Source of the DNA: a virus
Reading direction: 5' to 3' (one strand)
IMG/VR virus record: IMGVR_UViG_3300036861_001106
Coordinates: 45,531 to 109,530 of that record
Length of the DNA stretch: 64,000 nucleotides
Shown here: piece by piece, positions 35,652 through 56,075 of the stretch
How positions within the stretch are numbered: position 1 is the first letter of the stretch
How the letters are laid out: every line of letters starts with the position of its first letter
The notes under the pieces: model-generated
The model's input: only the letters and a program-made list of their open reading frames with translations
The model's database searches: none
What the model was told of the DNA's origin: nothing
Made by a program: the position numbers and the translations under genes

Positions 35652-35699
35652 ACTCATCTCCTTTCGGTGGGGACCGTTGGTGAAATTCAAACGCGCCAC

Positions 35700-35728: not shown

Positions 35729-35807
35729 GAGAGTGGCTCGACAAGACTCTCCTTGGTCCGAAGAGCTTTCTGTGCGCGGTCTACCTGACCCTACCCATCC
35801 GTCCTCG

Positions 35808-35839
35808 AAGCCACAGCCGGTCCCCACTAGCTGTGGCTT
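35808..35839. terminator. 10-bp hairpin in the primase leader
   Basis: AAGCCACAGC (35,808-35,817) pairs perfectly with GCTGTGGCTT (35,830-35,839) across a 12-nt loop. It is symmetric, so it folds in both transcripts. There is no U-run after it on either strand, so termination is not certain. Confidence 0.45.
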
Positions 35840-35844
35840 CCTCC

Positions 35845-35873
35845 ATGGTAACGCTTTCCTCCTCCCACGTCAA
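35845..35873 (-). promoter_or_regulatory. promoter of the primase-helicase operon
   Basis: On the minus strand TTGACG (35,873-35,868) and TACCAT (35,850-35,845) are 17 bp apart. Transcription would begin near 35,839, leaving a leader of about 185 nt before the primase start, containing the 35,808-35,839 hairpin. Confidence 0.5.
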
Positions 35874-35874
35874 G

Positions 35875-35899
35875 CAAAATAGGGGGCCTCGCGGCCCCC
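35875..35899 (-). terminator. rho-independent terminator of the recombination operon
   Basis: On the minus strand GGGGGCC and GGCCCCC (35,899-35,893 and 35,888-35,882) form a GC-rich stem with a 4-nt loop, followed by TATTTTGC. It lies 23 bp after the stop of the SSB-like gene. Confidence 0.75.
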
Positions 35900-35921
35900 A
35901 GCGTCAGCTTCTCACCGTCCC

Positions 35922-36620: not shown

Positions 36621-36622
36621 CG

Positions 36623-38342: not shown

Positions 38343-38349
38343 GGTTTTT

Positions 38350-39264: not shown

Positions 39265-39275
39265 CTCATTCCTCC

Positions 39276-40262: not shown

Positions 40263-40278
40263 TTCTTTCTTCTCCTGA

Positions 40279-42021
40279 TCACCCTGCTGCAAGTGCCGTG
40301 CCATCGCTGACCAGCGTCTTGATCAGGTCCACCCGCTTCTTCCTTGCTGCATCAATGTCCTCGTCGATCGTGCCCTGCAGGATGAGGTCGTAGATGACGT
40401 ACGACCGCCTTCTTCCTAGCCGGTGGCCCCTGTCCTCGCTTTGTAGTCGCTCCAGGATCTGGAAGGTGCCGGAGTGGTAGATGAGGACGTCCGCCGCTGG
40501 CGCGTCGATGCCGTACGCCCCGGCGCTGACGTTGATCACCAGGATCCGCAGGCTGTCCCCCCGGTCCCCGAAGCGACCCAGGGCTACCTCGCGCGCCGCC
40601 GGCTTCGTGCGACCGTCAATGGCCCCCACTGCGAGCCCTGCCGCCTGTAGCTCACCCACCACGCGATCCAGCTCCGGTTGGAAGCGCGTCCAGACGATGA
40701 TCTGTGCGTCGCTATTCTCAATCGTCTCCAGACAGAACTGCAGCACCCACTCTGTCTTTGGACTTGGTAGCAGGTCCACTCGCCCCTCATCCTCGCCCTC
40801 CACCTCCGTCAGGGGCAGCAGCCCCGCTGTCACCTGCTGCTGCCGCGTGCAGCGTGCGATGGCGGAGGCGATCGTCAGCGTTCCCTTCCTACCATCCGCC
40901 AACGCGGTCTCCAGCCCGTACTGCCCGGTCACCTGCTGGTACACCTTCGCCTGCGCGGGGCTCATCTTCAGGCGCACCTCACGGTAGGTCTTCGGCGGCA
41001 TGTCCGTCACCGCCGCCTTGGTGGCCCGGTAGGCGGTGCGGTACATCCTGTCCACCAGCTCCGGCAGCTTGTCCGTGCGGACGCCCACGCACTGCCACCC
41101 GGTGAAGCCCCCCAGGTGGCAGTACCGCTTCATGAACGACCAGTAGCTGCCCGGGAACACGGTGGGGTCGGTGAACTGGAACTGCGCCCAGAGGTCGCCC
41201 GGGTCCGCGCCCATCGGCGTGCCCGTCAGGGTCACCCGCCAGCGGGCTGCCCTGGCCACCTTGCGGGCTGCGCGGGAGACCTGGGAGGTTCGTCCCCGGA
41301 TGCGGCTGGCCTCGTCAGCGACGATGAGGTCCAGTTTCCCCGCCAGCGCCGCCAGCTCCTCCTGCAGGAGGTACAGCACGTCCCAGTTGAGGATCAGGAT
41401 TGTTGGGTCAAGCTGCTCCTGCCGGGCCAGGGCCTTGAGCAGCCTGCCGCGCTCGACCACGGGCCCGGTGAGAACCAGCACCTCGGCGCCCGGGTAGCCG
41501 TTCGTGGCGCACACGCGCCACTGCTCCATGATGACCTTCGGGCACAGCACCAGCACGAGCCCGCACCGCAGCGCACGCATCAGGTCGGTCGCAAGTCTGC
41601 TCTTGCCCATGCCCATGTCGAGCCAGCACCCGAAGCCATGGCCACCCTGGCCGAACACGCGGAGGCACTCTGCCAGGCACTCAACCTGGTGGCGGAACGG
41701 TGGTGGCAAGCCTGGGGCTGGCTCGGGGTAGTGGGCCTCCCACGCCGTGGCGCTCGGCAGCAGCTCCGCCCGCAGGGCGAGGTACGCGTCCTCCACCCCG
41801 TCGAGCTTGCCGACCGTCTCCAGCATGCGCAGCGCCGTCACCGTCGGGGGCAGCAGCAGCACCGCGCGCTCCCCAGCCGAGCCAAGCGCGTAGCGTGCCC
41901 CCGGCACTGCCTCCAGCAGCGCCAGTGCCCCCTCCGTCCCGACGTAGGCAAGCTTGCCGCCAATCACCCCGGCGCGCGGGTGTGGCACGACAGCGCGGTG
42001 GCGCGCCTCCTTGACCTCCAT
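40279..42021 (-). CDS. SNF2-family DNA helicase/translocase
   Basis: 580 residues. Motif I WLDMGMGKSRLATD (about 130-143), motif II LIVADEAS (about 230), motif III VTLTGTPMG, and C-terminal helicase motifs V (INVSAGAYGIDAPAADV) and VI (QSEDRGHRLGRRR) define an SF2 Snf2-type motor. An N-terminal region of about 110 residues is unassigned. Phage enzymes of this type act in replication restart, transcription or recombination. Precedes the KGG gene in the leftward operon from 42,385. Confidence 0.9.
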   Translation of the reverse strand: MEVKEARHRAVVPHPRAGVIGGKLAYVGTEGALALLEAVPGARYALGSAGERAVLLLPPTVTALRMLETVGKLDGVEDAYLALRAELLPSATAWEAHYPEPAPGLPPPFRHQVECLAECLRVFGQGGHGFGCWLDMGMGKSRLATDLMRALRCGLVLVLCPKVIMEQWRVCATNGYPGAEVLVLTGPVVERGRLLKALARQEQLDPTILILNWDVLYLLQEELAALAGKLDLIVADEASRIRGRTSQVSRAARKVARAARWRVTLTGTPMGADPGDLWAQFQFTDPTVFPGSYWSFMKRYCHLGGFTGWQCVGVRTDKLPELVDRMYRTAYRATKAAVTDMPPKTYREVRLKMSPAQAKVYQQVTGQYGLETALADGRKGTLTIASAIARCTRQQQVTAGLLPLTEVEGEDEGRVDLLPSPKTEWVLQFCLETIENSDAQIIVWTRFQPELDRVVGELQAAGLAVGAIDGRTKPAAREVALGRFGDRGDSLRILVINVSAGAYGIDAPAADVLIYHSGTFQILERLQSEDRGHRLGRRRSYVIYDLILQGTIDEDIDAARKKRVDLIKTLVSDGTALAAG

Positions 42022-42023
42022 CG

Positions 42024-42317
42024 TTACTCGCCCGCCAGCTCGTCGGTCCTGGCCTGCTCCTCCGCCACGCGCAGCTCCTCGGCGCGGGTGACCAGCTTGT
42101 GCACGCGGCTGCCGACGCCGCCGCTGCCTCCTAGCTTGCCGATCTTCTGAAAGTGCTGCACGCCATGGCGCGCCTTCGTCGTCGTGCCACCCTTCTTGCC
42201 GATTGCCGCGTAGAACTCACTGCCGTGCCTGTTTCGACAGGCAGTGCCCCGGAGGTGCATTGTGTCACGACATGTCGCCTGGCCCGCGTTCGGGTTCTTC
42301 GCGTTTGGTCTCGCCAT
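42024..42317 (-). CDS. KGG-motif small protein
   Basis: 97 residues from the ATG at 42317 (GAGGAGAGG upstream). The segment HGSEFYAAIGKKGGTTTKARHG and QKIGKLGG carry the glycine-lysine KGG motif of bacterial stress/sporulation-type (GsiB/con-10-like) proteins; CRNRHG adds a possible metal ligand. Function unknown; may bind nucleic acid. First gene of the leftward operon. Confidence 0.7.
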   Translation of the reverse strand: MARPNAKNPNAGQATCRDTMHLRGTACRNRHGSEFYAAIGKKGGTTTKARHGVQHFQKIGKLGGSGGVGSRVHKLVTRAEELRVAEEQARTDELAGE

Positions 42318-42350
42318 CATCCTCTCCTCGCCCTGCGAGGGCTGAAAATT

Positions 42351-42426
42351 GCGCTTGCTTTAGTCTACCGACGCTTGCTTCCAACGTCAAGTCTCCTTGA
42401 CAAAACGCTTGCTTCGCGGGCACAAT
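42351..42426. promoter_or_regulatory. divergent promoters with three 9-bp direct repeats
   Basis: Leftward: TTGACG (42,390-42,385), 17-bp spacer, TAGACT (42,367-42,362). Rightward: TTGACA (42,397-42,402), 18-bp spacer, CACAAT (42,421-42,426). CGCTTGCTT occurs at 42,351-42,359, 42,372-42,380 and 42,406-42,414, overlapping both spacers, as expected of operator sites for a shared regulator. Confidence 0.65.
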
Positions 42427-42449
42427 CAGGTGAGGAGGCTTCCCTGCTG

Positions 42450-43205
42450 ATGAGTGCTGACGCGCCCGAGACCCCCCGCGACGGTGAGTACCTCCCGACG
42501 TCCGCCGAGGCTGCCCTGCAGTTCCAGTCCCTGCGCGTGCTGCGGTTTGCGGAGGAGTACGTGCGGTGCGGCAACATGCAGGAGGCAGCGCGCCGCGCCG
42601 GCTTCACCGGGAGTGAGCCGCAGCTTCGACGGTGTGCCCAGCGACTGCTGGCCCGCGAGGACGTGGGGAACTACGTGGTCGCGCACCTGCGCTCCATCGT
42701 CTCGCCCGCCGAGGCGGGGGCCATCCTCTCCTCCATCATCCGCGGTTCGATGGGATTCTTCATCGACATCACGGAGGAGGGCACCCCCGTGCTGAACCTC
42801 AACAAGCCCGAGGCCCAGGCCAACCTGCACCTCATCAAGCGGCTCAAGCCAACTAAGCTGGGCTTTGAGATCGAGCTTTGTGACAAGATGCCAGCGCTTG
42901 CCCTCTACGCCAAGTACGCGCCGCCGCTCGACCAGCGCGCGATGCAGCGCCGCGCGGTGGAGGAGCTGCTGCAGGCTCTCCCGCCGAAGCTACGGGATGA
43001 GGCGCGGGAGGCGCTGTGTCAGGACCATGGCGCCAACCTCCAGGTCAGTGAGGGGCCTGACGGGGGTGACATGGCCAGCGCCGCTGCCGAGGTGGATCTC
43101 TCTTGGCTAAGACCGGAGGAGGAAGCAGCAGCAGCTACCACTACCACTCCCACTCCCACTGTTGCTCCAGCCCCTGAGGTAGAGGATGAGCCTGAATCTT
43201 GGTGA
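42450..43205 (+). CDS. terS: terminase small subunit
   Basis: 251 residues from the ATG at 42450 (TGAGGAGG upstream). The N-terminal helix-turn-helix (VLRFAEEYVRCGNMQEAARRAGF, about 28-52) is the Terminase_2-type DNA-binding domain; the middle GIxxD segment and the disordered Pro/Thr-rich tail follow. Recognises packaging sites and recruits the large subunit, whose gene overlaps by 20 bp. Driven by the rightward promoter at 42,397. Confidence 0.85.
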   Translation: MSADAPETPRDGEYLPTSAEAALQFQSLRVLRFAEEYVRCGNMQEAARRAGFTGSEPQLRRCAQRLLAREDVGNYVVAHLRSIVSPAEAGAILSSIIRGSMGFFIDITEEGTPVLNLNKPEAQANLHLIKRLKPTKLGFEIELCDKMPALALYAKYAPPLDQRAMQRRAVEELLQALPPKLRDEAREALCQDHGANLQVSEGPDGGDMASAAAEVDLSWLRPEEEAAAATTTTPTPTVAPAPEVEDEPESW

Positions 43206-44943
43206 GCAGATTGCGGGGTACATTCGCTCGCTGATTCCCGCATCTGACCTCTCCTCCGCCATCGGCTCCGACGAGCGCGAGGCGTGGCGGCAGCGGTACT
43301 GGTCGGACCCTGTCCTCTTTGCGCGTGACCACTACCGGTGGCACAACGACCGGTGGCTCGCGGCTTACCAGCAGGACATCCTGCGCCGGCTCCACACCCA
43401 CAAGCGCGTTGCTGCCTACGGACCCCGCTCGTTTGGCAAGACGGCGACCGTTGCCCACGCTTGCCTTCACTTCTGTCTCACCCGCGACGGCTTCACTGAC
43501 TGGAAGATCCCCACCACCGCTGGCGGCTACCGGCAGCTTGAGAAGTACCTGTGGCCCGAGCTGCACAAGTGGGCGCGCCTCCTGCGGTGGGACAAGCTCT
43601 GGCGCAAGCCCTTCTCGCGCCGTGACGAGCTGATGAAGCTCTCCCTGGAGGGGGAGACCGGCTCCGCCTTCGCCGTGGCCTCTGACGACGCCGCCCTCAT
43701 TGAGGGCGCACACGCCACGCAGATGCTGTTCATCTTCGATGAGTCGAAGAGCATTCCCGACTCCGTCTTCGATTCTGTGGAGGGCATGCTGGCCGGCGCC
43801 GGCCTTGATGACCAGGAGGCGTACCTCCTGGCGACCTCCTCCCCCGGCGACGTCAGCGGGCGCTTCTGGGCCATCTGCGACCGGCAGGAGAAGTTCGCCG
43901 ACTGGGACGTGCGGGAGGTGCGCATCGAGGAGGCCATCGCCGCGCGCCGCGTCAGCGCTGACTGGGCGCAGAAGCGCATGCTGCAGTGGGGGTACAGCTC
44001 CACCCTCTTCCAGAACCACGTCCTCGGCCGCTTCGCCAGCGCCGCCAGCGACGGCGTCATCCCCAGCTTCTGGGTCGAGGAGGCGCAGGCGCGGGGCCCG
44101 CAGGAGGCGCGTGGGCCCGCCGACGGCGCCAGCGTCGTCAACTTCGGGGTGGACGTGTCGCGCGGTGGGCGCAACGAGACCGTGATTGCCGTCCGCCGGG
44201 GCTGGGCCATCATCGACCTCATCGCCTGGCAGGACAACGACACCCTCAAGGTGGTCAAGCGGGTCAAGGAGGCAGCCGCGAAGTACCGCCCCGCCGCCAT
44301 CATCATCGACGCGGTGGGTGTGGGTGCTGGCGTGTTCGACGTCCTGCGCGACGAGGACTTCCCGGTGGTGTCCTTCCACGGCGGCGAGGCTGCGCCGGGT
44401 CCTGACTCCACCGGGGAGGTTGAGTTCCTGAACTTTCGCGCCTGGGCCTGGTGGCACCTGCGCGAGCTGCTCAACCCCCACGGGCCCGTCAAGCTCTCCC
44501 TGCCCGAGGATCGTGTCCTCCTCACGCACTTGACGGTCGGGACCTACAGCAAGGTGGGTGACCGGCTCAAGCTGGAGAGCAAGGAGGAGATCGAGAAGCG
44601 CCTGCGGAAGCTGAACCCCAACCCCGAGGAGAGCTGCTCCCCCGACCGCGGCGACGCCGTCGTCATGTGCTTCTCGGACGACAGCACCAGCAACTTCGCC
44701 ACCCTCTACACCGTCCACACCGCCGCCTCCCTCGCCGTCGAGGCGCCCCGCCTGCAGGGTCTCCCCACGTCGCCCGTTGCCCTCACCCCCACCGCTGCGA
44801 CCGCAGCGTTCGTCGCGCGGGAGCAGTGGTACGCGGCGCAGCAGGCTGCGCGGGAGAAGCAGGCGCGCCCGCTGGAACAGCAGCTCGACAGCCTGTTGTG
44901 GCAGCGGGCGCACCGGAACCACGACGTTTGGAACCAGGACTGA
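43186..44943 (+). CDS. terL: terminase large subunit
   Basis: 585 residues. ATPase: Walker A GPRSFGKT (79-86), Walker B LFIFDES (181-187), coupling motif ATSSP. Nuclease: GVDVSRGG with Asp323, IIIDAVGVG with Asp375 and SPDRGDAVVM near 485 complete the RNase H-like metal site. Packages DNA into the procapsid and cuts it. The rest of the packaging/head module is not downstream, where an AT-rich HNH gene and leftward genes follow. Confidence 0.93.
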   Translation: MSLNLGEQIAGYIRSLIPASDLSSAIGSDEREAWRQRYWSDPVLFARDHYRWHNDRWLAAYQQDILRRLHTHKRVAAYGPRSFGKTATVAHACLHFCLTRDGFTDWKIPTTAGGYRQLEKYLWPELHKWARLLRWDKLWRKPFSRRDELMKLSLEGETGSAFAVASDDAALIEGAHATQMLFIFDESKSIPDSVFDSVEGMLAGAGLDDQEAYLLATSSPGDVSGRFWAICDRQEKFADWDVREVRIEEAIAARRVSADWAQKRMLQWGYSSTLFQNHVLGRFASAASDGVIPSFWVEEAQARGPQEARGPADGASVVNFGVDVSRGGRNETVIAVRRGWAIIDLIAWQDNDTLKVVKRVKEAAAKYRPAAIIIDAVGVGAGVFDVLRDEDFPVVSFHGGEAAPGPDSTGEVEFLNFRAWAWWHLRELLNPHGPVKLSLPEDRVLLTHLTVGTYSKVGDRLKLESKEEIEKRLRKLNPNPEESCSPDRGDAVVMCFSDDSTSNFATLYTVHTAASLAVEAPRLQGLPTSPVALTPTAATAAFVAREQWYAAQQAAREKQARPLEQQLDSLLWQRAHRNHDVWNQD

Positions 44944-45026
44944 CCCCCCCCACCCTTCCTCGCGGATCCCTCTTCGTCGTCAGGGGCACTCCGTCTGAAA
45001 ATTTGGGGTCAGGATTCAGCATTTTT

Positions 45027-45515
45027 TCAGGCTGGGTGATTAGCGCATATCTTTCTTGCCATTTCAATAAACTCATCATCGGACATTGATGATTTTATGA
45101 TGTTTATCCTCCAACAACACAGGACGGTATTCTCTTTGGTATACCCTTTAGTGACCTTTTTTCGGCTTACGGATACACAAGCCGGATCGTTTCTTTTTAT
45201 CGTCATTTGTTCTCCTGTATAGTAGCAAAGTCCTTTTTGCAACTCCCAAAGTACTTTTAAGTGGTTCTCATCGATGTCAAAACTTAAATTTTGACACTTT
45301 GCTCTTGCCCTTGCTGATAAGAATCTGTAGTGAAAGATCGCTGTCTGTGCCCAAGTCTTGGATTGGGTTTTATACTTCTCATTGCTCGTCCGGTAGTACT
45401 TCAAGCTTGTGCACTTCTTGCACCGCCCCTTTACCGTCTCATAGAAGCAGTCTGGATCTTGGCAGCCACACTCTTTGCACAAGTGCGGCCTCGGCTTGGA
45501 GCCTCTTTTCCCCAT
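45027..45515 (-). CDS. HNH-type homing endonuclease, AT-rich
   Basis: 162 residues. N-terminal zinc knuckles (CKECGCQDPDCFYE, CKKCTSLKYY) precede LQKGLCYYTGEQM and GYTKENTVLCCWRINIIKSS, the phage HNH layout (GxCxYTGxxM ... GYTxENVVxxCxxxNxxKSxM). The usual Asp-Arg of SLDRI is ACVSVSRK here. Strong AT bias against the neighbours marks recent insertion just downstream of terL, a common site for homing genes. Confidence 0.7.
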   Translation of the reverse strand: MGKRGSKPRPHLCKECGCQDPDCFYETVKGRCKKCTSLKYYRTSNEKYKTQSKTWAQTAIFHYRFLSARARAKCQNLSFDIDENHLKVLWELQKGLCYYTGEQMTIKRNDPACVSVSRKKVTKGYTKENTVLCCWRINIIKSSMSDDEFIEMARKICANHPA

Positions 45516-45565
45516 CGGATTACCCTGTCTGGTGGGGCAGAGCAGTGCCCCCTCCCTTTTTCAGC

Positions 45566-45766
45566 CTACTCGCCGAGCACCTGCGTGTAGCTCTCCCGGT
45601 ACTCAGCGTCATCGATGACCTTCTTCAACTCGTTCTTGTCGTTGAACAGCACCCAGTCGCCGGGCTGACCCAGGGTCACGCTGATTCCGCCAGCGACCTT
45701 CACTCGTAGGGGCTCCTCAAGCTGCACCGCGCTCAGCACGCTGGAGAGCTTCGTCACCTGCCGCAT
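45566..45766 (-). CDS. hypothetical protein, 66 aa
   Basis: ATG at 45766 with GAGAGGAGG upstream. Beta-rich with LGQPGDWVLFNDKNE, similar to small phage proteins carrying a PGDxLVxxD-type turn. Function unknown. Confidence 0.6.
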   Translation of the reverse strand: MRQVTKLSSVLSAVQLEEPLRVKVAGGISVTLGQPGDWVLFNDKNELKKVIDDAEYRESYTQVLGE

Positions 45767-45781
45767 CGTTCCTCCTCTCAG

Positions 45782-45812
45782 GCAAGAAAAGGGGGTACCC
45801 GAGGGTACCCCC
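45782..45812 (-). terminator. rho-independent terminator after the PEP-CTERM gene
   Basis: On the minus strand GGGGGTACC (45,812-45,804) pairs with GGTACCCCC (45,799-45,791) across a 4-nt loop and is followed by TTTTCTTGCC. It lies 24 bp beyond the PEP-CTERM stop. Confidence 0.8.
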
Positions 45813-45835
45813 GCTCAGTCAGCTAGCAGTCACAA

Positions 45836-46507
45836 CTAGGCCAGCTTCAGGACCGGCCACTTCTTGCGCTTCAGAAAGCCGAGTGCGCCGAACCCCAGCA
45901 GCCCCAGCGAGCAGGGCTCGGGGACCGGGTTAGGTAGGCAGTCGCCCTTGTCGTAGCGGAACTGTGCCATGGCGAAGTCCACGTCGGAGTGCGCCACGAC
46001 CTTCGAGAACAGCGCGCCGTCGTCCACCGAGGCGAACAGCCGTGCACCCGCCGCGCCATCCACGGGGCGCGTGATGCTGCCCAGCAGCACGTCACCGGCG
46101 TCGTAGAAGTCCGCCGTGATGTCATGCACCGCGAACGGGTTGGGCTCCGCCTCGAAGCCGAAGATGCTCGTCGGGGAGCTGAGGAGCATCGTGACCGAGG
46201 TGGCTCCCTTGGTCCACAGGACCGCGGGGGTGGCGCTCTCGCTGTCCGGGGGGCTGCTCCAGGTCGCCCAGCCGCCGCCCGGGACCGTCCGCTTCTGCAT
46301 CAAGGAAGAAAACGAGACGGTCTCCGTGCCGTCCGTGATCGAGCCGACGTCAGTGAAGTTGGGCAACCCACTGAAGTCGATCTTCGTGGTGACGAAGGTG
46401 TACAGCACGGACGGCGAGGAGATGTCCTCAAAGGTGGCGTGCGCCGGGCGGGGGCACGCCGCGCAGGTCAGCAGCAGCGACAGGGCGACCAACAGCTTGT
46501 GCTTCAT
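45836..46507 (-). CDS. secreted PEP-CTERM-anchored protein
   Basis: 223 residues from the ATG at 46507 with GGGGAGGAG upstream. Sec signal peptide (MKHKLLVALSLLLTCAACPR, cleavage near AHA), a mature beta-rich domain of about 170 residues with few cysteines, and a C-terminal sorting signal: VPEP, a hydrophobic helix (SLGLLGFGALGFL) and the basic end KRKKW. Host exosortase (EpsH family) would recognise this and process the protein to the surface or matrix. PEP-CTERM proteins are typically chromosomal surface or floc proteins, so this is most unusual in a phage. A perfect sigma-54 promoter and structured leader lie upstream; a terminator follows. Confidence 0.85.
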   Translation of the reverse strand: MKHKLLVALSLLLTCAACPRPAHATFEDISSPSVLYTFVTTKIDFSGLPNFTDVGSITDGTETVSFSSLMQKRTVPGGGWATWSSPPDSESATPAVLWTKGATSVTMLLSSPTSIFGFEAEPNPFAVHDITADFYDAGDVLLGSITRPVDGAAGARLFASVDDGALFSKVVAHSDVDFAMAQFRYDKGDCLPNPVPEPCSLGLLGFGALGFLKRKKWPVLKLA

Positions 46508-46517
46508 GTAACTCCTC

Positions 46518-46598
46518 CCCCTCGCGGGGCTGTCAGGGGCTCCTTGCGGAGCCAGTTCCTCACCCGGCGCGACCCTCTCACGGGTCCCTGGCGTCGGG
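46518..46598 (-). promoter_or_regulatory. structured 5' leader of the PEP-CTERM mRNA
   Basis: Three stem-loops follow in order after the predicted start: a long stem 46,598-46,563 (CCCG/CGGG outer, CGC/GCG, GACCC/GGGUC around GUGAGA), GGCUCC-GCAA-GGAGCC (46,553-46,538) and CCCC-GCGA-GGGG (46,529-46,518), the last two with GNRA tetraloops and ending against the ribosome site. No known riboswitch consensus was recognised. Confidence 0.5.
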
Positions 46599-46610
46599 CA
46601 ACTTGCTTGG

Positions 46611-46626
46611 TGCAACCTCCGTGCCA
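46611..46626 (-). promoter_or_regulatory. sigma-54 (-24/-12) promoter
   Basis: Minus strand TGGCACG (46,626-46,620), GAGG, TTGCA (46,615-46,611): exact match to the sigma-54 consensus with the required N4 spacing. Transcription would start near 46,600, about 93 nt before the PEP-CTERM ATG. PEP-CTERM genes in known bacteria are controlled by RpoN with PrsK/PrsR. Confidence 0.8.
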
Positions 46627-46631
46627 AACCG

Positions 46632-46889
46632 CTAGCCAGCGTGAAAGTCGGTGAGGATGACGCCAGGGGTTCCCTGCGTCGTGAGTTCCTCGCACGTTGA
46701 GAACGTCGCATCAAGCCAGGCGCGCTTGCCCTCGGCGCCGACACTGTGCTCGGCTGCAATCGCTCGCGCCTCCTCTGCCGTGGCAGCGCGCACCACAAGG
46801 CCATAGGTGCAGTCATAGGTGATCAACCACGGATTTTGCGCCTTCGTGTCAGGCAGCCCCTCTCTTTCTCGTAGCAGCCAGAGCTTCAT
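46632..46889 (-). CDS. hypothetical protein, 85 aa
   Basis: ATG at 46889 after AAGGAGGAGG, overlapping the stop of the next upstream gene (ATGA). Soluble, with AEEARAIAAEHSVGAEG and WLDATFSTCEELT, a pattern common among small phage proteins. Unknown function. The sigma-54 element lies just past its stop codon. Confidence 0.6.
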   Translation of the reverse strand: MKLWLLREREGLPDTKAQNPWLITYDCTYGLVVRAATAEEARAIAAEHSVGAEGKRAWLDATFSTCEELTTQGTPGVILTDFHAG

Positions 46890-47299
46890 GCCTCCTCCTT
46901 CGCGTGCTGCCGCGCTCGCCGTTCGTCCCGCCTCTCCACGTACAGCTCCACCGCCCGCAGGGGGTCCTCCAGGTAGCACTCAGCGAACAACACGCCGTCG
47001 AAGTCGTCCTTCGAGACGTCCTCATAGTGCACAGCGATGGAGACTGCGTCAGCCACCTGGTGGATAAAGTCGAGCCTCTCCTCTGGGCACTCCTTCTCCG
47101 CCGCGCACACGGTCATGCTAATTGGCTTTTGGACTCGGGTGATCGTGATCGGCCAGTCAGGCCGCAGGGTGCGTGCGACCATTGCGGCAATCGTCACCTG
47201 GTTGCGCCGGTAGGTCTCGAACTCCTCGTCGGTCACCTCCCAGCCGGCCGGCTTGATGGCACCCACTCGGAGGTGGGTCATGATCTTCTCGTCACTCAT
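46886..47299 (-). CDS. hypothetical protein, 137 aa
   Basis: ATG at 47299. Soluble, mixed alpha/beta, with a charged helical C-terminus. No motif recognised. Coupled to its neighbours by ATGA overlap downstream and an 8-bp overlap with the next upstream gene's end. Confidence 0.55.
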   Translation of the reverse strand: MSDEKIMTHLRVGAIKPAGWEVTDEEFETYRRNQVTIAAMVARTLRPDWPITITRVQKPISMTVCAAEKECPEERLDFIHQVADAVSIAVHYEDVSKDDFDGVLFAECYLEDPLRAVELYVERRDERRARQHAKEEA

Positions 47300-47546
47300 C
47301 CTCTGCGTCCTTCCACACCTCTGCTGAGACTGGGTACGTGCTGGTGCTGCCGGTCAACAGCCTCACCGGCACCCACACGCCCGGTGCCTTGCGGCCCTGG
47401 CGGGCGCGCGTGTGGTTCACCTGCGTCGCCGGCACCTCGCGCCGGCCCGGCTCGCTGCACAGCCACACCTCGCGCGTCACCGCGCGGGCGAAGCGGTAGA
47501 GCCGCACGCCGCCCCGCGTGTCCTCCACGGCGTACCACCACCTCAC
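47292..47546 (-). CDS. hypothetical protein, 84 aa
   Basis: GTG at 47546 in a GTGA overlap. Basic, beta-rich (RWWYAVEDTRGGVRLYRFA). No family recognised. Confidence 0.5.
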   Translation of the reverse strand: MRWWYAVEDTRGGVRLYRFARAVTREVWLCSEPGRREVPATQVNHTRARQGRKAPGVWVPVRLLTGSTSTYPVSAEVWKDAEDE

Positions 47547-47671
47547 TGCCTGCCCTCCCACCACGCCTGGGCCTTCAGTGCCACCAGCAGGATCACGATG
47601 CCCACCAGCAGGGCCCCGCCCATGATCGCCCCTGGCGACAGCGTCTCGACGCCGCCGCGGGCCAACATCAT
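47543..47671 (-). CDS. one-helix membrane microprotein, 42 aa
   Basis: ATG at 47671 (or 47668) with AGAGGTG upstream. One membrane helix (about 15-36: AIMGGALLVGIVILLVALK). Function unknown; the longer reading frame upstream is a shadow. Confidence 0.55.
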   Translation of the reverse strand: MMLARGGVETLSPGAIMGGALLVGIVILLVALKAQAWWEGRQ

Positions 47672-47702
47672 CACCGCTGCACCTCTGCCACGTGCCTCAC
47701 GT

Positions 47703-47921
47703 TCATCTCTTGGCTCCTTTGTCGCCGTCCGCCTCCAGCCAGTGGTGCTTCCTTCGCCACTCTCGCAGCACCTTCTCGGGGTTTGGCTCAGTGCGGGCGT
47801 AGCGCAGCAGCAGCGCCTGCCCCACCGCCTCGCGCTCGTTGAGGTCATCCATGAGGGCGTTGTAGTCACTCCCCGACAGGTTGATGCTGTTGTAGGGGCT
47901 CATGTGGCGGTTGCGGCTCAC
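47703..47921 (-). CDS. hypothetical protein, 72 aa
   Basis: GTG at 47921 overlaps the previous stop (GTGA); ATG at 47903 is the alternative. Charged, soluble (SPYNSINLSGSDYNALMDD). Unknown. Confidence 0.5.
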   Translation of the reverse strand: MSRNRHMSPYNSINLSGSDYNALMDDLNEREAVGQALLLRYARTEPNPEKVLREWRRKHHWLEADGDKGAKR

Positions 47922-48259
47922 CGTCGCACCTCCGCCACGCGCTCCATGATCACCAGGAAGCGCGCCCCGTTCGAGTACTGCACCACGGTGACCCCGCCCG
48001 GCGTCACCCGCCACCCCCGCCCCAGCCGCCCGCGCAGCTCGCTCGCCAGCTCGCTGTCCGTGCACCACACGAAGTCCTGCTGGCGCACCTGCTTGAGCAT
48101 CCCGCCGGTGGGGCCAAACCCCCCCGTCGTGCCCGGGCTCACCCGCTCCGCCTGTGCCTGCGTCACGTGGCAGAGCCCCGCGCCCGTGAGCGCCACGATG
48201 GCCAGGAGGCCAATGAGCGACCGGTGCTCCTGAAGTTGCAGCCGAAGTTCCTTGAGCAT
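47918..48259 (-). CDS. membrane-anchored hypothetical protein, 113 aa
   Basis: ATG at 48259 in a TGATG overlap. One N-terminal membrane helix (about 16-31: LIGLLAIVALTGAGLC) then a soluble domain with WRVTPGGVTVVQYSNGARF. Could be membrane-tethered facing the periplasm. Unknown function. Confidence 0.55.
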   Translation of the reverse strand: MLKELRLQLQEHRSLIGLLAIVALTGAGLCHVTQAQAERVSPGTTGGFGPTGGMLKQVRQQDFVWCTDSELASELRGRLGRGWRVTPGGVTVVQYSNGARFLVIMERVAEVRR

Positions 48260-49507: not shown

Positions 49508-49861
49508 TCACAACACCCGGTGGCGCAGCGCCGTCTCGTCGCCGTACAGGGTGCAGGCCAGCGCCGCCATCACTGCCCGGTTCGCCTCCTCCACCGTTCG
49601 CAGGGGCCACGGCACGCGCAGGTGCCCCTTGCAGTCCAGGGGGAACAGGCGCGCGTCGGCGAGCAACTCGTTGAGCCGCCGCAGCTCCCCCGTCAGGCAG
49701 TCCACCCGGTGGGTGCCCCCGGTGGGCCGGTGGCCAATCGTCCCCTTGCTGCGGTAGATCGTGATCACCTCCGCGCCCGGCGGGAGCAGCCGGCGGAGGG
49801 TCATCAGCGCCCGGTCCTGCGCCTCCGCCTCGCACGCCCCGTGCGTTCCTGTGAGCCTCAC
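49508..49861 (-). CDS. hypothetical protein, 117 aa
   Basis: GTG at 49861 with AGGTGAG upstream. Soluble, basic, with a Cys pair and an ALM-type helix. No family recognised; last codons overlap the next gene's possible GTG. Confidence 0.5.
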   Translation of the reverse strand: MRLTGTHGACEAEAQDRALMTLRRLLPPGAEVITIYRSKGTIGHRPTGGTHRVDCLTGELRRLNELLADARLFPLDCKGHLRVPWPLRTVEEANRAVMAALACTLYGDETALRHRVL

Positions 49862-49862
49862 C

Positions 49863-50078
49863 TCAGACCTCCTTTTTCACCAGCTCAACCACGCGCCGCG
49901 CCTCACCACTGTGTGCGACCACGCGCTGGGCACTCTCGCGTGTCAAGGTGAACCCCGCACTCCGGTAGGTCCCCAGCGTGCGCCGGAATACTTGGTTGGC
50001 GAACCCCTCGTCGTCGTCCGACCAGGCGCTGATCAGCGTCCCCGTCTCCGCGTCCGTGGTCTGCACCTGCCACCTCAT
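49863..50078 (-). CDS. hypothetical protein, 71 aa, translated after IscB
   Basis: ATG at 50078 overlaps the IscB stop codon (ATGA), so ribosomes leaving iscB can restart here. Soluble (RWQVQTTDAETGTLISAW...). Unknown; its coupling shows iscB is fixed into the operon rather than freshly inserted. Confidence 0.55.
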   Translation of the reverse strand: MRWQVQTTDAETGTLISAWSDDDEGFANQVFRRTLGTYRSAGFTLTRESAQRVVAHSGEARRVVELVKKEV

Positions 50079-51361
50079 TTGTCCTCCCTCTGGAACTTGT
50101 ACTCGTACCCGTCGCACCTATGAACTTTCTTGCAGGCGCGGTGAGTGACTTCAATACTGCCACCTATTTTAAATGACCCAGAGGCCCTGACTGCCACGCG
50201 TCCAACGTGGGTCATTCTGACCTCCTTTCTTGTTACCGTCGCGCTCACGATGTCTCCCGTTTGAAATCCGAAGTGCAGCTTCTTTCGGGTTCGGTGCCTC
50301 GTGGGGAATCCATGCGCGTTCAGGCCGCACATCTGTCGCTTTCCCCACCCTGTGGCCTTGATGCTGAGGGGGCGAATTCCCCTGACTTGAAGCTGTTCCG
50401 GTGTGCTCGCGCCAACGCAGGCTGCATCAAGCCAGTGCTCCTTTGGCAGTCCCAGGCGCGTTCGGTTGAACTTCGTGCGCCCGCCAGTGCCAACTTCAAT
50501 CGGCAGCCCAGTTGCTGTCAGCCGTCGCCACAGGACCCACCGCGTTGCGTTGACTGCCGCCGCGTCCTTGAGTGGGGCCTTCAGCCCGGCGAGGATCTTC
50601 TTCAGGACCTCAGGGTGTCTGGCCAGGAACTCCTCCACTGGCCGGTTGCTCTTGGCCTGGTTGCACGGCCCACACGCGAGGGTGAGGTTCGAGACGCGGT
50701 GCGTGCCGCCTCCATCGCGCGGGCGCACGTGTTCCACCTGGAGCGGGACGTGTTCCGCATTACAGTAGGCGCACCTCCGGCCCCACTTCTCCAGCAAGTA
50801 CTCCCGCACCTCATAGCCAGCCAGCTCACCCTGCTGGTACTCGACTCCTGTCACCTCCGGGTTCTGCAACGCCTGGGTGTCGAAGCGCACCGTCTCCACG
50901 CTTAGTGCGCCAACGGGCGCGAACCGGCACAGGCGGCCCACCCACGTCTCCACGTTGGCCACCCGGCTCTCCAGCGACGGCGGCAGCCAACCCTCCCGTC
51001 GGGTGCGGTTGTCAAAGCGTGGCTTGCGGTAGCGCGTCTTCCGGTTTCGGCGGTTGCGTCGAACTGCGCTTCGTTTCTTCATGCACTTCTCAATGAGCAT
51101 GCCATGGTGCTCGACCTCTGCGGCGAAGATGACGGTCGCTGCCACGTCGTCCACAAGGGCAACCCCTGTGACCTTGCTGCCTGGGTCCAACTTCAGGCGC
51201 AGGGGGCGTGGCGTGGCGTCCACCACCTGTCGCCGCAGGATGATGGTGAAGGGAAAGCGCCGCAGCACGGCCGCTCTTCCCGTGGCCAGCAACTTCCGCG
51301 CCACTGCGGCGTGGCAGGGCGTCAGCGGCTGGCGATCCGCGTTCAGGACAAAAACTCGCAT
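50075..51361 (-). CDS. iscB: IscB RNA-guided endonuclease
   Basis: 428 residues from the ATG at 51361 with GAGGAG upstream; the longer frame begins inside the RNA scaffold. PLMP domain at 1-45 (VFVLNADRQPLTPCH, ATGRAAVLRRFPFTI), RuvC-I LKLDPGS (Asp59), arginine-rich bridge helix about 95-115, RuvC-II GALSVET (Glu156), HNH with CAYC and CGPC-type zinc ligands and His211 (VEHVRPRDGGG), Asn225 and LACGPCNQAK, RuvC-III EHWLDAACVGAS (His309, Asp312), and a C-terminal domain with HFGFQTGDIVSA. All catalytic residues are present, so it should cut DNA guided by an omega RNA. An RNA scaffold and CRISPR array lie directly upstream on the same strand. No TnpA is nearby. Confidence 0.93.
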   Translation of the reverse strand: MRVFVLNADRQPLTPCHAAVARKLLATGRAAVLRRFPFTIILRRQVVDATPRPLRLKLDPGSKVTGVALVDDVAATVIFAAEVEHHGMLIEKCMKKRSAVRRNRRNRKTRYRKPRFDNRTRREGWLPPSLESRVANVETWVGRLCRFAPVGALSVETVRFDTQALQNPEVTGVEYQQGELAGYEVREYLLEKWGRRCAYCNAEHVPLQVEHVRPRDGGGTHRVSNLTLACGPCNQAKSNRPVEEFLARHPEVLKKILAGLKAPLKDAAAVNATRWVLWRRLTATGLPIEVGTGGRTKFNRTRLGLPKEHWLDAACVGASTPEQLQVRGIRPLSIKATGWGKRQMCGLNAHGFPTRHRTRKKLHFGFQTGDIVSATVTRKEVRMTHVGRVAVRASGSFKIGGSIEVTHRACKKVHRCDGYEYKFQREDK

Positions 51362-51619
51362 CGCTGCGAACTCCTCTCGCGAGGGTAAGGTTTGCCTCGA
51401 CGATGTTAGCAGGCGGCCGTCTCCCGGACTCACTGTGGCACCCACGTGAACCTCGCTTAAAGCCCGGGTTACAGGGCGGCAGGCTGGCAACGCACCCGCC
51501 GGTGTGAACTTGGGCGCTCTCTGCTAACGTAGCCCGTTGACCGGCTGACGCCGGTCCTGGCTGGGTCTGGTCTGCCAGGGAGCGAGTTAACCTCGCTCCC
51601 ATGCGCGCGTGGGGCAGAC
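51362..51619 (-). ncRNA. putative omega RNA scaffold (repeat R1 plus downstream structured region)
   Basis: 258 nt between the end of the last spacer and the iscB ATG. The first 28 nt are repeat R1. GTCTGCC and GGGAGCGAG of R1 (51,619-51,613 and 51,600-51,592) pair with CTCGCTCCC (51,586-51,578) and GGCAGAC (51,576-51,570). A further hairpin is GACCGG...CCGGTC (51,556-51,539). The guide would be the spacer 5' of R1, the order known for omega RNAs. Confidence 0.75.
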
Positions 51620-51841
51620 GAACCGTGGCCAATGCGCGGGCGGCTGGAACCTCTCGCTCCCATGCGCGCGTGGGGCAGACTTGTCGCGAATGAGGCCGGA
51701 GTGGCGGAACAGCCTGCCTCCCGCGCGCGCGTGGGGCAGACTGGTGGACCCAGCTACGGTCGCCCAACGTCGCCCTGCCTCCCGCGCGTGTGTGGGACAG
51801 ATGACCGGGCCGATGACCTCCCGCGCGTGTGTGGGGCAGAC
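51592..51841 (-). CRISPR. five-repeat mini-CRISPR array associated with iscB
   Basis: 28-nt repeats at 51,814-51,841 (R5), 51,775-51,802 (R4), 51,714-51,741 (R3), 51,653-51,680 (R2) and 51,592-51,619 (R1). Spacers R4-R3, R3-R2 and R2-R1 are each 33 nt (61-bp period, as in type I-E arrays); the R5-R4 spacer is only 11 nt. R1 and R2 are identical; R3-R5 differ at several positions and at the 3' end (GCGAG versus GGCAG/GGTCA). Each repeat opens GTCTGCCCCAC (ATCTGTCCCAC in R4). No cas genes are in the window. The array starts 2 bp after the stop of a small membrane gene. Confidence 0.88.
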
Positions 51842-51842
51842 C

Positions 51843-51941
51843 TCATTGCCCTCGTCCCTTCCACCACGCCATGCAGAACCCCACAATGAGCGCCACGAGC
51901 CAGATGAGCAGGAACAGCCCTAGAGTCCGCGCGTCGATCAC
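51843..51941 (-). CDS. membrane microprotein, 32 aa, upstream of the CRISPR array
   Basis: GTG at 51941 overlaps the previous stop (GTGA). One membrane helix (LGLFLLIWLVALIVGFCM). Its stop is 2 bp from the first CRISPR repeat, so the array is probably co-transcribed with this operon. Confidence 0.5.
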   Translation of the reverse strand: MIDARTLGLFLLIWLVALIVGFCMAWWKGRGQ

Positions 51942-52201
51942 TGTGCTGCCCCGGGCCACTCAAAGCTGAATGGCTCAACCGCCTCCCCGGCCATGAACTG
52001 CGCGATCTTCTCCCCTACGGCATCAGGTAGCCGCACGGTGGCCTCACCTTCAATGAAGACTACCAGGCAGCCGACGCTCCTGAACCTCACCCCTGCCGCC
52101 TTGAGTGCCACTGCCACGCAGCAGTGCGTTGTTGCTCGCTCACCCACGGTCAGGGCCTCGCGTGCCTGGGCGATGTGCTCCGCTGTCACCTCAATCCGCA
52201 T
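51938..52201 (-). CDS. hypothetical protein, 87 aa
   Basis: ATG at 52201 with GGGAGG upstream. Soluble, with AEHIAQAREALTVGERATTHCCVAV, seen in small phage proteins. Unknown. Confidence 0.55.
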   Translation of the reverse strand: MRIEVTAEHIAQAREALTVGERATTHCCVAVALKAAGVRFRSVGCLVVFIEGEATVRLPDAVGEKIAQFMAGEAVEPFSFEWPGAAQ

Positions 52202-52466
52202 CGTCACTTGCCTCCCGCTGTGCCGCCTCAATCTCGTCGGCCAGCCGCTCCCAGTCGAGCGCGCACTTCCGCCAGTCCGCCGCCGCGCGCTCGTGAAACT
52301 CGCGCCACTCTGCCCGGCGCCACCACCGCCGCGCCTGTGCCGCCACCTCATGCTCGCGCACCAGCTCATAGCACCTTGCTGCTTGGGCGCGGAACCACTT
52401 GGTGTCTGCCATTGCCGCCTGGGGGAACATTGCTACTTTCCTGCGCAGCCACTCGTTGTCTGCCAT
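52191..52466 (-). CDS. hypothetical helical protein, 91 aa
   Basis: ATG at 52466 with AGGAGG upstream. Almost entirely helical and rich in Trp/Arg/Glu. Overlaps the next gene by 11 bp. Unknown. Confidence 0.5.
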   Translation of the reverse strand: MADNEWLRRKVAMFPQAAMADTKWFRAQAARCYELVREHEVAAQARRWWRRAEWREFHERAAADWRKCALDWERLADEIEAAQREASDDAD

Positions 52467-52508
52467 GGTCGCCTCCTGCACCCTCTGTGCCAGTCTGCCG
52501 TTGCTTCC

Positions 52509-52787
52509 TCACGACGCAGTGTTGTGCCGCTCCGCGACCGCCCAGAAGAGGGCATCGAACTCCACCGGCAGCAGGTCGTCCAGCGGGCAGCCGTCCTCGT
52601 CGACGTTCCGCGCCCCGTTGTGGCTGTCGACGGGCTCGATGCAGATGCTCCAGCCCTGCGCCGTCACCTCCCGCTGGAGGTCCGCCGCGAACTCGCGGAC
52701 GTCGCCAGCCCAGAGCGGACCCAGCATCGCCGCGTCAATCTGGTACGTAATTGGTTCCACGCCGCTACCTCCGGCCTTCTTCCTCAC
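52509..52787 (-). CDS. hypothetical protein, 92 aa
   Basis: GTG at 52787 overlapping the previous stop (GTGA); a GTG at 52760 after CCGGAGGT is the alternative. Soluble, acidic, with FAADLQREVTAQGW. Unknown. Confidence 0.5.
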   Translation of the reverse strand: MRKKAGGSGVEPITYQIDAAMLGPLWAGDVREFAADLQREVTAQGWSICIEPVDSHNGARNVDEDGCPLDDLLPVEFDALFWAVAERHNTAS

Positions 52788-53434: not shown

Positions 53435-54076
53435 CTAAACCTGCGCCCCACGCCCGCGGGCGAAGGTGCACGCCTCCTGCCACCCCAGCGCCGTGAAGAT
53501 GCCGCTCTTCGGGCCAAAGTAGCCATTCCCCGGCTCCTCGAAGAACCTGTACCTAACGGCGTGGTCTCCAGGTGACCAAGTAGCGACGTACAAGCCGACT
53601 GCCTTGCATGCTTCTTGAAGTCTTTCCAATCGCGTCTTCTTTCCAGTCATTCGATTTCTTTCCTGTCGCTTCTCGCGTCTTTGTGAGTTTTTGCATTCTC
53701 GGCAGACTCGCCGTCCTCGCTTGTCTTTGGGGCCATAAGGATGCCCGTGAGGACAGTGGGTCTTATTGGCAAGTATTGTAGCCGCACCGTCTTCTTCCTT
53801 GATATGCTCCGCTGCTGTTTTCGGCTCCAGGTGCTCAAAGTTAGCGCAGGCGCGATTTCGACATCGATGATGCAATTGCTGATCCTCCGTTAGAGGCTCA
53901 ACGAAGTGCGCATAAACGACTCTGTGAACAACATGCGCTTTCCTACTCATGCGTGCTTCGCCATACCCGCGCGTGTTTAACCTTGGGTACTCCCAGCATC
54001 CCGTTTCGAGCGCGCTTGGCTCGCAAATCTTCAGGCGCAGGAGGACTTCTCCAATCGTAAGCGTTGGCATCGGCAT
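53435..54076 (-). CDS. HNH endonuclease fused to a duplicated small-gene sequence
   Basis: 213 codons, ATG at 54076. Residues about 45-130 are an HNH_3-type homing nuclease: VHRVVYAHFVEPLTEDQQLH HRC then RNRACANFEHLEP, with HCPHGHPYG and CRECKNSQRR knuckles. Residues about 143-213 (TRLERLQEACKAVGLYVATW SPGD...) repeat the protein of the small gene just upstream (54,076-54,216), and an ATG at 53,650 could start it separately. The reading frame is continuous, so the HNH ORF was inserted so that it reads into the target gene. The insert is AT-rich. Confidence 0.75.
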   Translation of the reverse strand: MPMPTLTIGEVLLRLKICEPSALETGCWEYPRLNTRGYGEARMSRKAHVVHRVVYAHFVEPLTEDQQLHHRCRNRACANFEHLEPKTAAEHIKEEDGAATILANKTHCPHGHPYGPKDKRGRRVCRECKNSQRREKRQERNRMTGKKTRLERLQEACKAVGLYVATWSPGDHAVRYRFFEEPGNGYFGPKSGIFTALGWQEACTFARGRGAQV

Positions 54077-54886: not shown

Positions 54887-55360
54887 CTAGTAGCGTCGCG
54901 AGATCCAATTGGTTGCGGCCGTCATGTCAAAGATCCGAAACTGTCGTCCTGCCGGAGCAAGCTGGACTGCCAGGCGTTGCATTGCAGCGGTCGCCGCCGC
55001 CCCGCGTGGGGTTGTCCAGTGGTCGCCTGACAGCACAAGGATTCCTTCTGCCGTTGGCCACTGGAAGAGCCCATTCAGTAGGACGTACGGAATCTTCTCA
55101 TCGCAACTGCCGCTGACACCTTGATGCTTCACCTCGATCGTCACTGTGGGGGTGCCATCCTGAAACAGGAGAAAGTCGACAACCCCCGCCGTTTGGTAAA
55201 TCGTGGTGAATGGAAACTCCCTGACGGCAATCAGGTCGTTAGCTCGCTCGCGGGCCCAGCGTGCGTGAGGCATGACCTTTACGCCCCGCGCAGTCAGTGC
55301 CATTGCAATGACCTCCTCGCCGGAGGCACGCCCGCGTGTGGTCTCCCCGCCGCCGGCCAT
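54887..55360 (-). CDS. PD-(D/E)XK-family nuclease-like protein
   Basis: 157 residues from the ATG at 55360 (TAATG overlap). The core reads GVVDFLLFQDGTPTVTIEVKHQ, with the metal-binding Asp and the E-x-K pair of restriction-type nucleases, followed by SGSCDEKIPYVLLNG. Could act on host DNA or in recombination. Translated together with the Dam-like methyltransferase downstream partner, hinting at a restriction/modification relation. Confidence 0.7.
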   Translation of the reverse strand: MAGGGETTRGRASGEEVIAMALTARGVKVMPHARWARERANDLIAVREFPFTTIYQTAGVVDFLLFQDGTPTVTIEVKHQGVSGSCDEKIPYVLLNGLFQWPTAEGILVLSGDHWTTPRGAAATAAMQRLAVQLAPAGRQFRIFDMTAATNWISRRY

Positions 55361-55923
55361 TACTCGCCTCCCCCACACCGGAGCACAGTTCCAAAGTCGG
55401 CGAACACCCGCGCAAAGCGCGTGGCATCAGGCCCAAAGTAGAGGAAGGCCTGTCCCCGCGTGTTTCCACTGACGCGCTTCCCGTCGATGTTCTCAAACCC
55501 GATGCGGTGGTTCGTGAAGCACACCGCAGTCGCGGTGCCTAGGAGCAGTTGAAAGAACCTCGTCTCGGTCGCGTTGTTGACGAGGACGATCCCTGCCTGA
55601 AATCGCCCGCTGTGGAAGGCTGCCACGAACTGCTGACACGCTTCAAGCACGAGCGCGCCAGAGTACGGCGGGTTCATCCAACAACTGCTCACCTCGGGCC
55701 ACTTCGGGCCCGCAGGCGCCGGCCGCTGGGCCGTGAAGAAGATGCGCGCCCCAACGCGCTCGTTTGCTGCCACGCTGGAGTACGGGTCAAGGTCGATTCC
55801 GCCCAGCACCCCGCGCGCCGCGTCAAGGTACCGCGCCGGCGTGTTCCACGAATCCGAATCCCGTGCCTCACTGCCTGGGGTCCGTCCAATGTACCCCAGG
55901 TGTTCCTTTGCCGCTGTTGTCAC
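55360..55923 (-). CDS. DNA N6-adenine methyltransferase, phage Dam type
   Basis: 187 residues from the GTG at 55923 (GTGA overlap). DSWNTPARYLDAARGVLGGI, DLDPYSSVAANERV and CWMNPPYSGALV carry the phage Dam (PF05869-like) motifs, with the catalytic NPPY intact. Modifies adenine in phage DNA, probably to escape restriction. Its stop overlaps the ATG of the PD-(D/E)XK gene. Confidence 0.85.
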   Translation of the reverse strand: MTTAAKEHLGYIGRTPGSEARDSDSWNTPARYLDAARGVLGGIDLDPYSSVAANERVGARIFFTAQRPAPAGPKWPEVSSCWMNPPYSGALVLEACQQFVAAFHSGRFQAGIVLVNNATETRFFQLLLGTATAVCFTNHRIGFENIDGKRVSGNTRGQAFLYFGPDATRFARVFADFGTVLRCGGGE

Positions 55924-56075
55924 CACGCCTCGACCACCCTTCCCTCGCGCGTCAGGCGCCCCGCCATGCCCGCCCGCTGCAGCCACGCCAACCACCCAAT
56001 CGCCTCCCCGCGCCCCGCGACCCGCCGGAACTCGCACCACGCCCCGTCAACGCGCCGCTCGACCACGTACCCCAC
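55920..56075 (-). CDS. hypothetical protein, 51 aa
   Basis: GTG at 56075 with AGGAGGT upstream. Ends GMAGRLTREGRVVEAW, clearly related to 58,086-58,244 (GMAGRILCDGRVVTDW), so this is a duplicated small gene. Trp-rich, soluble. Unknown. Confidence 0.6.
   Translation of the reverse strand: MGYVVERRVDGAWCEFRRVAGRGEAIGWLAWLQRAGMAGRLTREGRVVEAW

What the first reader, a model, noticed from the sequence alone, without database searches (positions are those of the whole stretch)
50075..51941. CRISPR-associated IscB in a phage
Intact IscB (all RuvC and HNH residues visible) directly preceded by an omega-RNA-like scaffold and a five-repeat CRISPR array on the same strand, inside an early phage operon with an ATGA overlap to the downstream gene. 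IscB with CRISPR arrays is known to be rare (first described in the 2021 OMEGA work, from a small number of loci). A phage carrying one could use a multi-guide nuclease against competing phages, host genes or plasmids. No Cas protein or transposase is present, so it appears to be a domesticated guide-fed nuclease.
Basis: partly seen in the sequence, partly recalled or inferred. Interest (0 to 1): 0.95.

Follow-up and report, generated by a model that had tools for sequence, protein, structure and literature searches.

The report
Phage IscB nuclease with CRISPR-like array
A bacterial virus carries a small RNA-guided DNA-cutting enzyme of the kind that gave rise to Cas9, and the front end of its guide RNA has been copied into a short CRISPR-like array, which looks like a rare half-way stage between the two kinds of system.

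Summary
Window 50075-51361(-) encodes an intact IscB (NCBIfam guided_IscB, 448 bits), preceded on the same strand by a HEARO/omegaRNA (51385-51619, 91.4 bits, gathering score 83). Upstream lie five repeats, four of them at exactly 61 nt, with unrelated spacers. The tools add one fact: the omegaRNA match starts on the first base of the last repeat (R1), and R1 ends in the loop of the next hairpin. So the repeat is the omegaRNA's own 5' guide-adaptor, and spacers sit where the guide belongs. R1 and R2 pair perfectly (16 bp) with the anti-repeat in the omegaRNA; R3-R5 pair little or no better than shuffles. The 61-bp pitch equals one type I-E Cas1-Cas2 addition. No Cas1, Cas6e or Y1 transposase was found in the 109.5-kb phage record. 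Phage IscB+HEARO is common (79 loci fetched; HEARO in 20 of 20 tested), but none of about 110 other IscB loci has such an array. Spacer targets, host, RNA expression and array turnover remain unknown. CRISPR-associated IscB has been described since 2021 (my own knowledge), so this is a well-formed, phage-borne member of a rare known kind. Only spacer 1, and perhaps 2, is likely usable; a five-guide multiplex nuclease is not supported.

The parts
50075..51361 (-). iscB, 428 aa, RuvC split by an HNH insertion; GAGAGGAG ribosome-binding site just upstream; ATGA overlap with the next gene
   Evidence: Pfam RRXRR/HNH, NCBIfam guided_IscB 448 bits, IscB entries of the PDB, invariant active-site residues
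51385..51619 (-). omegaRNA (HEARO, RF02033); its first 28 nt are repeat R1
   Evidence: cmscan 91.4 bits, E 2e-18, model 1-211
51591..51619 (-). repeat R1 = guide-adaptor 5' strand of the omegaRNA, GTCTGCCCCACGCGCGCATGGGAGCGAGG
51570..51586 (-). anti-repeat CTCGCTCCC-T-GGCAGAC within the omegaRNA: 9 + 7 bp with R1 or R2
   Evidence: fold and duplex, R1 -29.4 and R2 -28.9 kcal/mol; 5 and 0 of 300 shuffles as good
51620..51652 (-). spacer S1, directly 5' of R1: position of the omegaRNA guide
51652..51680 (-). repeat R2, identical to R1 over 28 nt
51681..51713 (-). spacer S2
51713..51741 (-). repeat R3 (4 of 28 changes; pairs with the anti-repeat no better than shuffles; folds on itself, -16.4 kcal/mol)
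51742..51774 (-). spacer S3
51774..51802 (-). repeat R4 (8 of 28 changes)
51803..51812 (-). stump of a fourth spacer (about 22 nt deleted)
   Evidence: 39-nt pitch instead of 61
51813..51841 (-). repeat R5 (8 of 28 changes, 3' end lost)
51843..51941 (-). 32-codon ORF for a membrane-peptide-like product; its TGA ends 1 nt before R5, so there is no non-coding leader on that side
   Evidence: read directly from the sequence
49863..50078 (-). downstream 71-aa gene, start codon overlapping the iscB stop
   Evidence: no family match

Best explanation
This is a CRISPR-associated IscB carried in an ordinary gene string of a phage. The array is made of extra copies of the omegaRNA's own 5' guide-adaptor, each preceded by a different 32-33-nt sequence. 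Shown: IscB, omegaRNA and array are present, and the last repeat is the start of the omegaRNA. Inferred: read-through transcription from the upstream genes yields S1-R1-omegaRNA as one molecule, which loads IscB so that the last 16-20 nt of S1 direct cutting of matching DNA next to a 3' target-adjacent motif; S2-R2 can be used like a crRNA, pairing in trans with the anti-repeat; the older units are mostly worn out. Inferred with less certainty: units were added at 61-bp steps by a host type I-E Cas1-Cas2 acting on the omegaRNA repeat, with the omegaRNA-proximal end as the growing end. The likely use is cutting competing phages, plasmids or host DNA.
For: IscB identity and intact active sites. 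HEARO begins on the first base of R1, and R1 ends in the hairpin loop between repeat and anti-repeat. Only R1 and R2 keep the perfect 16-bp pairing with the anti-repeat, as expected if they are still used. Repeat changes form a series from R1 (0, 4, 8, 8 of 28), so copies match the present omegaRNA best nearest to it. Exact 61-bp pitch three times with unrelated spacers; one type I-E acquisition adds 61 bp (PMC11788318). No second copy of the omegaRNA 5' end lies upstream of any of 22 other omegaRNAs, against four extra copies here. PMC9581776 proposes this region (SL2 and one strand of S1/SL1) as the part of omegaRNA that became the CRISPR repeat on the way to Cas9.
Against: No spacer match to any possible target. 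No RNA data. No related phage reaching the array, so no spacer turnover seen. No sigma-70-like promoter in 49800-52600 (such scans mean little in a 65% GC genome). The growing end inferred from R1/R2 identity is the opposite of what type I-E repeat orientation would suggest. The host is unknown, and the repeat was not found as an array in 897 sampled genomes.
Confidence: 0.62

Rival explanations
1. Viral CRISPR mini-array that serves the host's own type I-E system (as a decoy or to aim host Cascade at rival phages), lying next to IscB because the omegaRNA 5' stem and the host repeat happen to share a form.
For: 61-bp pitch as in type I-E; [quoted passage not shown]
Against: R1 is built into the omegaRNA and pairs perfectly with its anti-repeat, which a host-directed repeat would not need. 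The repeat has no match within 2 mismatches in 598 Actinomycetota and Chloroflexota genomes and only two lone chance-level sites within 3 mismatches in 299 Pseudomonadota genomes. The host phylum is unknown, so this is not excluded.
Confidence: 0.15
2. Decayed array: units were once added, but today only S1 as the single omegaRNA guide matters, so the locus works as an ordinary single-guide phage IscB (for example as a homing-type or exclusion nuclease).
For: R3-R5 have drifted and pair little or no better than shuffles; the fourth spacer is truncated. Most phage IscB loci have omegaRNA without an array.
Against: R2 is identical to R1 over 28 nt with an unrelated spacer, which points to recent copying or continuing selection.
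Confidence: 0.15
3. Unrelated interspersed palindromic repeats (REP-like or left-over transposon ends) that resemble a CRISPR array.
For: Such repeats exist near an IscB: L056 has many copies of GTTTCCAACCTGTTGCC...GCAAC between HEARO and iscB. The omegaRNA 5' region is also a transposon-end element in IS200/IS605 relatives (PMC9581776).
Against: L056 copies have irregular pitch (50-73 nt) and lie outside the omegaRNA; here the pitch is exactly 61 three times and the repeat is the omegaRNA 5' end. No Y1 transposase in the record, and no element end or insertion scar was seen.
Confidence: 0.06

Closest known systems
CRISPR-associated IscB loci (Altae-Tran et al. 2021, Science; recalled, paper not held; a 2025 Nat Commun paper on 'a CRISPR-associated IscB system' is cited in PMC12991159)
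   Same: IscB gene preceded on the same strand by omegaRNA that is continuous with a CRISPR-like repeat and spacers; no adaptation genes at the locus
   Different: Phage-borne; exact 61-bp type I-E-like pitch; graded decay of repeats away from the omegaRNA. I could not compare repeat and spacer lengths with the published loci.
HEARO/IscB of phages and plasmids (PMC9755519; viral loci)
   Same: IscB 46-61% identical and omegaRNA of the same family, also often in phage genomes
   Different: They carry one omegaRNA with one guide and no array
Type II CRISPR-Cas9 (crRNA repeat plus tracrRNA anti-repeat)
   Same: Repeat and anti-repeat pairing next to a RuvC-HNH nuclease
   Different: Repeat and anti-repeat are still joined in one omegaRNA; 428-aa IscB rather than Cas9; no cas1
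Type I-E CRISPR arrays and viral mini-arrays (PMC11788318, PMC11656645)
   Same: 61-bp unit; 5-nt lead, short hairpin, 7-8-nt tail in the repeat
   Different: No cas1 or cas6e; the repeat belongs to an omegaRNA; no host array with this repeat was found

Membership tests
IscB (OMEGA RNA-guided nuclease) | RRXRR/RuvC protein split by HNH, above the curated cut-off of the IscB family | tested here: met
   NF040563 448.3 bits against 175; Pfam RRXRR 231.6 bits and HNH
IscB (OMEGA RNA-guided nuclease) | Catalytic residues of RuvC and HNH intact | tested here: met
   Invariant in alignment A1; assignment of individual residues to the catalytic set is by motif position, not by structure
IscB (OMEGA RNA-guided nuclease) | HEARO/omegaRNA directly upstream on the same strand | tested here: met
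   RF02033 at 51385-51619, above gathering score
IscB (OMEGA RNA-guided nuclease) | RNA-guided cleavage of DNA | not testable with these tools
   needs biochemistry
CRISPR-associated IscB | Regular repeat-spacer array adjoining the omegaRNA, unique spacers | tested here: met
CRISPR-associated IscB | Repeat continuous with, or complementary to, the omegaRNA | tested here: met
   R1 = first 28 nt of HEARO; R1 and R2 pair with the anti-repeat
CRISPR-associated IscB | Spacers match mobile elements | tested here: inconclusive
   No match for any of three spacers; the S1 similarity to a Streptomyces plasmid (E 0.06, one gap) is best taken as chance
CRISPR-associated IscB | Joint spacer-repeat-omegaRNA transcript bound by IscB | not testable with these tools
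   needs RNA-seq
Type I-E CRISPR-Cas | cas1, cas6e and other cas genes | tested here: not met
   no PF01867 or PF08798 in the 109.5-kb record; positive controls rang; other cas genes not searched
Type I-E CRISPR-Cas | 61-bp repeat-spacer unit | tested here: met
   three units of exactly 61 bp (PMC11788318)
Viral CRISPR mini-array | Repeat identical to the host's CRISPR repeat | tested here: inconclusive
   host unknown; no array with this repeat in 897 sampled genomes, IMG/VR, plasmids or phages
Type II CRISPR-Cas9 | Separate tracrRNA and cas1/cas2 | tested here: not met
   anti-repeat is fused to R1 in one omegaRNA; no Cas1; protein only 24.5 bits to Cas9d against a cut-off of 375
IS200/IS605 transposon cargo | Y1 transposase TnpA nearby | tested here: not met
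   no PF01797 in the record; elements without TnpA remain possible

The most novel reading that the evidence does not exclude
A living intermediate between OMEGA and CRISPR: the guide-adaptor half of a phage omegaRNA has become a repeat that a host type I-E Cas1-Cas2 recognises and copies in trans, so the phage's IscB gains new guides from another system's adaptation machinery, with the omegaRNA acting both as leader and as tracrRNA.
Probability: 0.2. Interest if true: 0.88.

Novelty: new member of a known kind. Interest (0 to 1): 0.62.

Why it matters
It shows in one natural sequence the step proposed for the origin of Cas9 guide RNAs (PMC9581776): the 5' strand of the omegaRNA adaptor multiplied as a CRISPR repeat while the anti-repeat stays with the scaffold. 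Both forms, joined (S1-R1-omegaRNA) and separable (S2-R2 plus anti-repeat), lie side by side, so single-guide and dual-guide use by one small nuclease can be tested directly. The 61-bp pitch makes it testable whether a type I-E integrase can feed guides to an IscB, and it would add an RNA-guided nuclease with an array to the known phage weapons.

Tried and rejected
Spacer targets: 20-nt seeds of three spacers against IMG/VR, the whole array against phages and plasmids, and against the phage itself: none. The S1-like stretch on a Streptomyces plasmid (34 of 39 with one gap, E 0.06) was read out and judged chance. Host repeat: pattern in 397 Actinomycetota, 201 Chloroflexota and 299 Pseudomonadota genomes: nothing beyond two lone hits at the level of the control. 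Related phages: the repeat pattern in IMG/VR gave none; terminase found L157, identical DNA to window 33186-48060 but ending 2 kb short of iscB. Other arrays: about 110 IscB upstream regions, not all independent, gave only irregular non-CRISPR repeats in L056 and weak distant chance pairs. Coding repeat: rejected because 61 is not a multiple of 3. REP-like repeats: rejected by fixed pitch and fusion to the omegaRNA. Multi-guide use of all five units: not supported by pairing. Structure prediction was not run, since sequence families already settle the protein.

Full report
What was checked. The finding covers 50075-51941 on the - strand of a 64-kb window that is part of a 109,530-base IMG/VR phage record. 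The phage carries a DnaE-type DNA polymerase, primase, helicase and terminase; its terminase is closest, at about 40% identity, to Streptomyces phage TurkishDelight and Actinoplanes phage phiAsp2. The host is unknown.

The protein. The ORF from ATG 51361 to TGA 50075 gives 428 aa. It is IscB: NCBIfam guided_IscB 448 bits (cut-off 175) and Pfam RRXRR plus HNH; the best PDB relatives are IscB chains. RuvC and HNH positions are invariant across six homologues, the others 49-61% identical to it.

The RNA. Rfam's HEARO family, which is the omegaRNA of IscB, covers 51385-51619 in full (91.4 bits, E 2e-18). HEARO was found in 20 of 20 viral IscB loci tested, and the first stem (S1) could be traced as a perfect 6-bp helix just before CAG or CCG in 17 of 23 omegaRNAs including this one, with changing sequence.

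The array. Five copies of a 28-nt repeat stand at 61, 61, 61 and 39 nt. No other lag between 40 and 90 gives a chain anywhere in the window, and shuffles give none. Spacers are unrelated to one another and to the phage.

The key fact. The omegaRNA match begins on the first base of the last repeat, R1. R1 contains one strand of stem S1 (GUCUGCC), a small hairpin (CCCA-UGGG) and one strand of the next stem (GGGAGCGAG), and stops in its loop; the partner strands CUCGCUCCC and GGCAGAC follow. The repeat is therefore the 5' guide-adaptor of the omegaRNA, and each spacer sits where an omegaRNA guide sits. [quoted passage not shown] Among 22 other omegaRNAs none has a second copy of its own 5' end within the upstream 700 nt available, while here four are found.

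State of the array. R1 and R2 are identical over 28 nt and pair perfectly with the anti-repeat (-29.4 and -28.9 kcal/mol; 5 and 0 of 300 shuffled repeats as good). R3, R4 and R5 differ by 4, 8 and 8 of 28 and pair no better or little better than shuffles (93, 100 and 17 of 300). The graded change suggests that units were added at the omegaRNA-proximal end, or that R1 and R2 are held together by selection; both readings imply that the R1 end matters. The far end is truncated (39-nt pitch) and abuts the stop codon of a 32-codon ORF, leaving no room for a normal leader there. Terminal repeats with substitutions or deletions are a known feature of the old end of CRISPR arrays (PMC8047081). Against this, the repeat's form (5 nt, hairpin, 7-8 nt) oriented as in type I-E would place the leader at the far end; the near-palindromic repeat leaves this open.

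Origin of the units. One type I-E acquisition adds 61 bp (PMC11788318). Three units of exactly 61 bp with unrelated content call for a ruler-like process such as Cas1-Cas2. The record has no Cas1, Cas6e or Y1 transposase (with positive controls), so any integrase would act in trans. This step is inference.

How rare. 79 viral IscB loci were fetched. In about 110 IscB loci with enough upstream DNA, from viruses, Chloroflexota and others, and not all independent, no comparable array was seen; the only clear repeats (L056) are irregular and outside the omegaRNA.

What could not be shown. No spacer target was found. No relative reaches the array: L157 is identical DNA but ends 2 kb short. No host array with this repeat was found. 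There is no RNA evidence. So 'adaptive' and 'against competing phages' remain guesses.

Place among known things. CRISPR-associated IscB was described in 2021 (my own knowledge; that paper is not held in the library) and has been engineered since (title cited in PMC12991159). Over 16% of HEARO-encoding fragments are viral or prophage-derived (PMC9755519). I therefore file this as a new member of a rare known kind, with unusually clear anatomy and a type I-E-like pitch as its special point.

Noticed in passing
window 45836-46510 (-): A 224-aa protein with a signal-peptide-like start and a PEP-CTERM sorting motif (VPEPCSLGLLGFGALGFLKRKK; Pfam PF07589 21.4 bits against 20.7, TIGR02595 18.3 against 16) in a phage genome: it may use the host's exosortase and hints at an exosortase-bearing host.
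   Followed up: partly
L056 2540-2990: Several copies of GTTTCCAACCTGTTGCCTTTTTGACCTATTTGCAAC at irregular spacing between a HEARO RNA and iscB in another phage contig; not CRISPR-like, function unknown. The same contig has a second HEARO downstream.
   Followed up: partly
window 51843-51941 (-): 32-codon ORF for a membrane-peptide-like product, GTG start overlapping the TGA of the gene before it, ending 1 nt before the array.
   Followed up: no
window 52373-52474: Two 48-nt stretches 75% identical, 54 nt apart (18 codons): an in-frame duplication within the ORF at 52191-52481(-).
   Followed up: no
window 25401-27428 (-) and 55360-56040 (-): Two DNA methyltransferases, N6_N4_Mtase and Dam families; an HNH endonuclease lies at 53435-54076.
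   Followed up: no
L157 (IMGVR_UViG_3300036860_000614): 14,875 bases 100% identical to window 33186-48060: the same phage in a second record, ending before iscB.
   Followed up: yes
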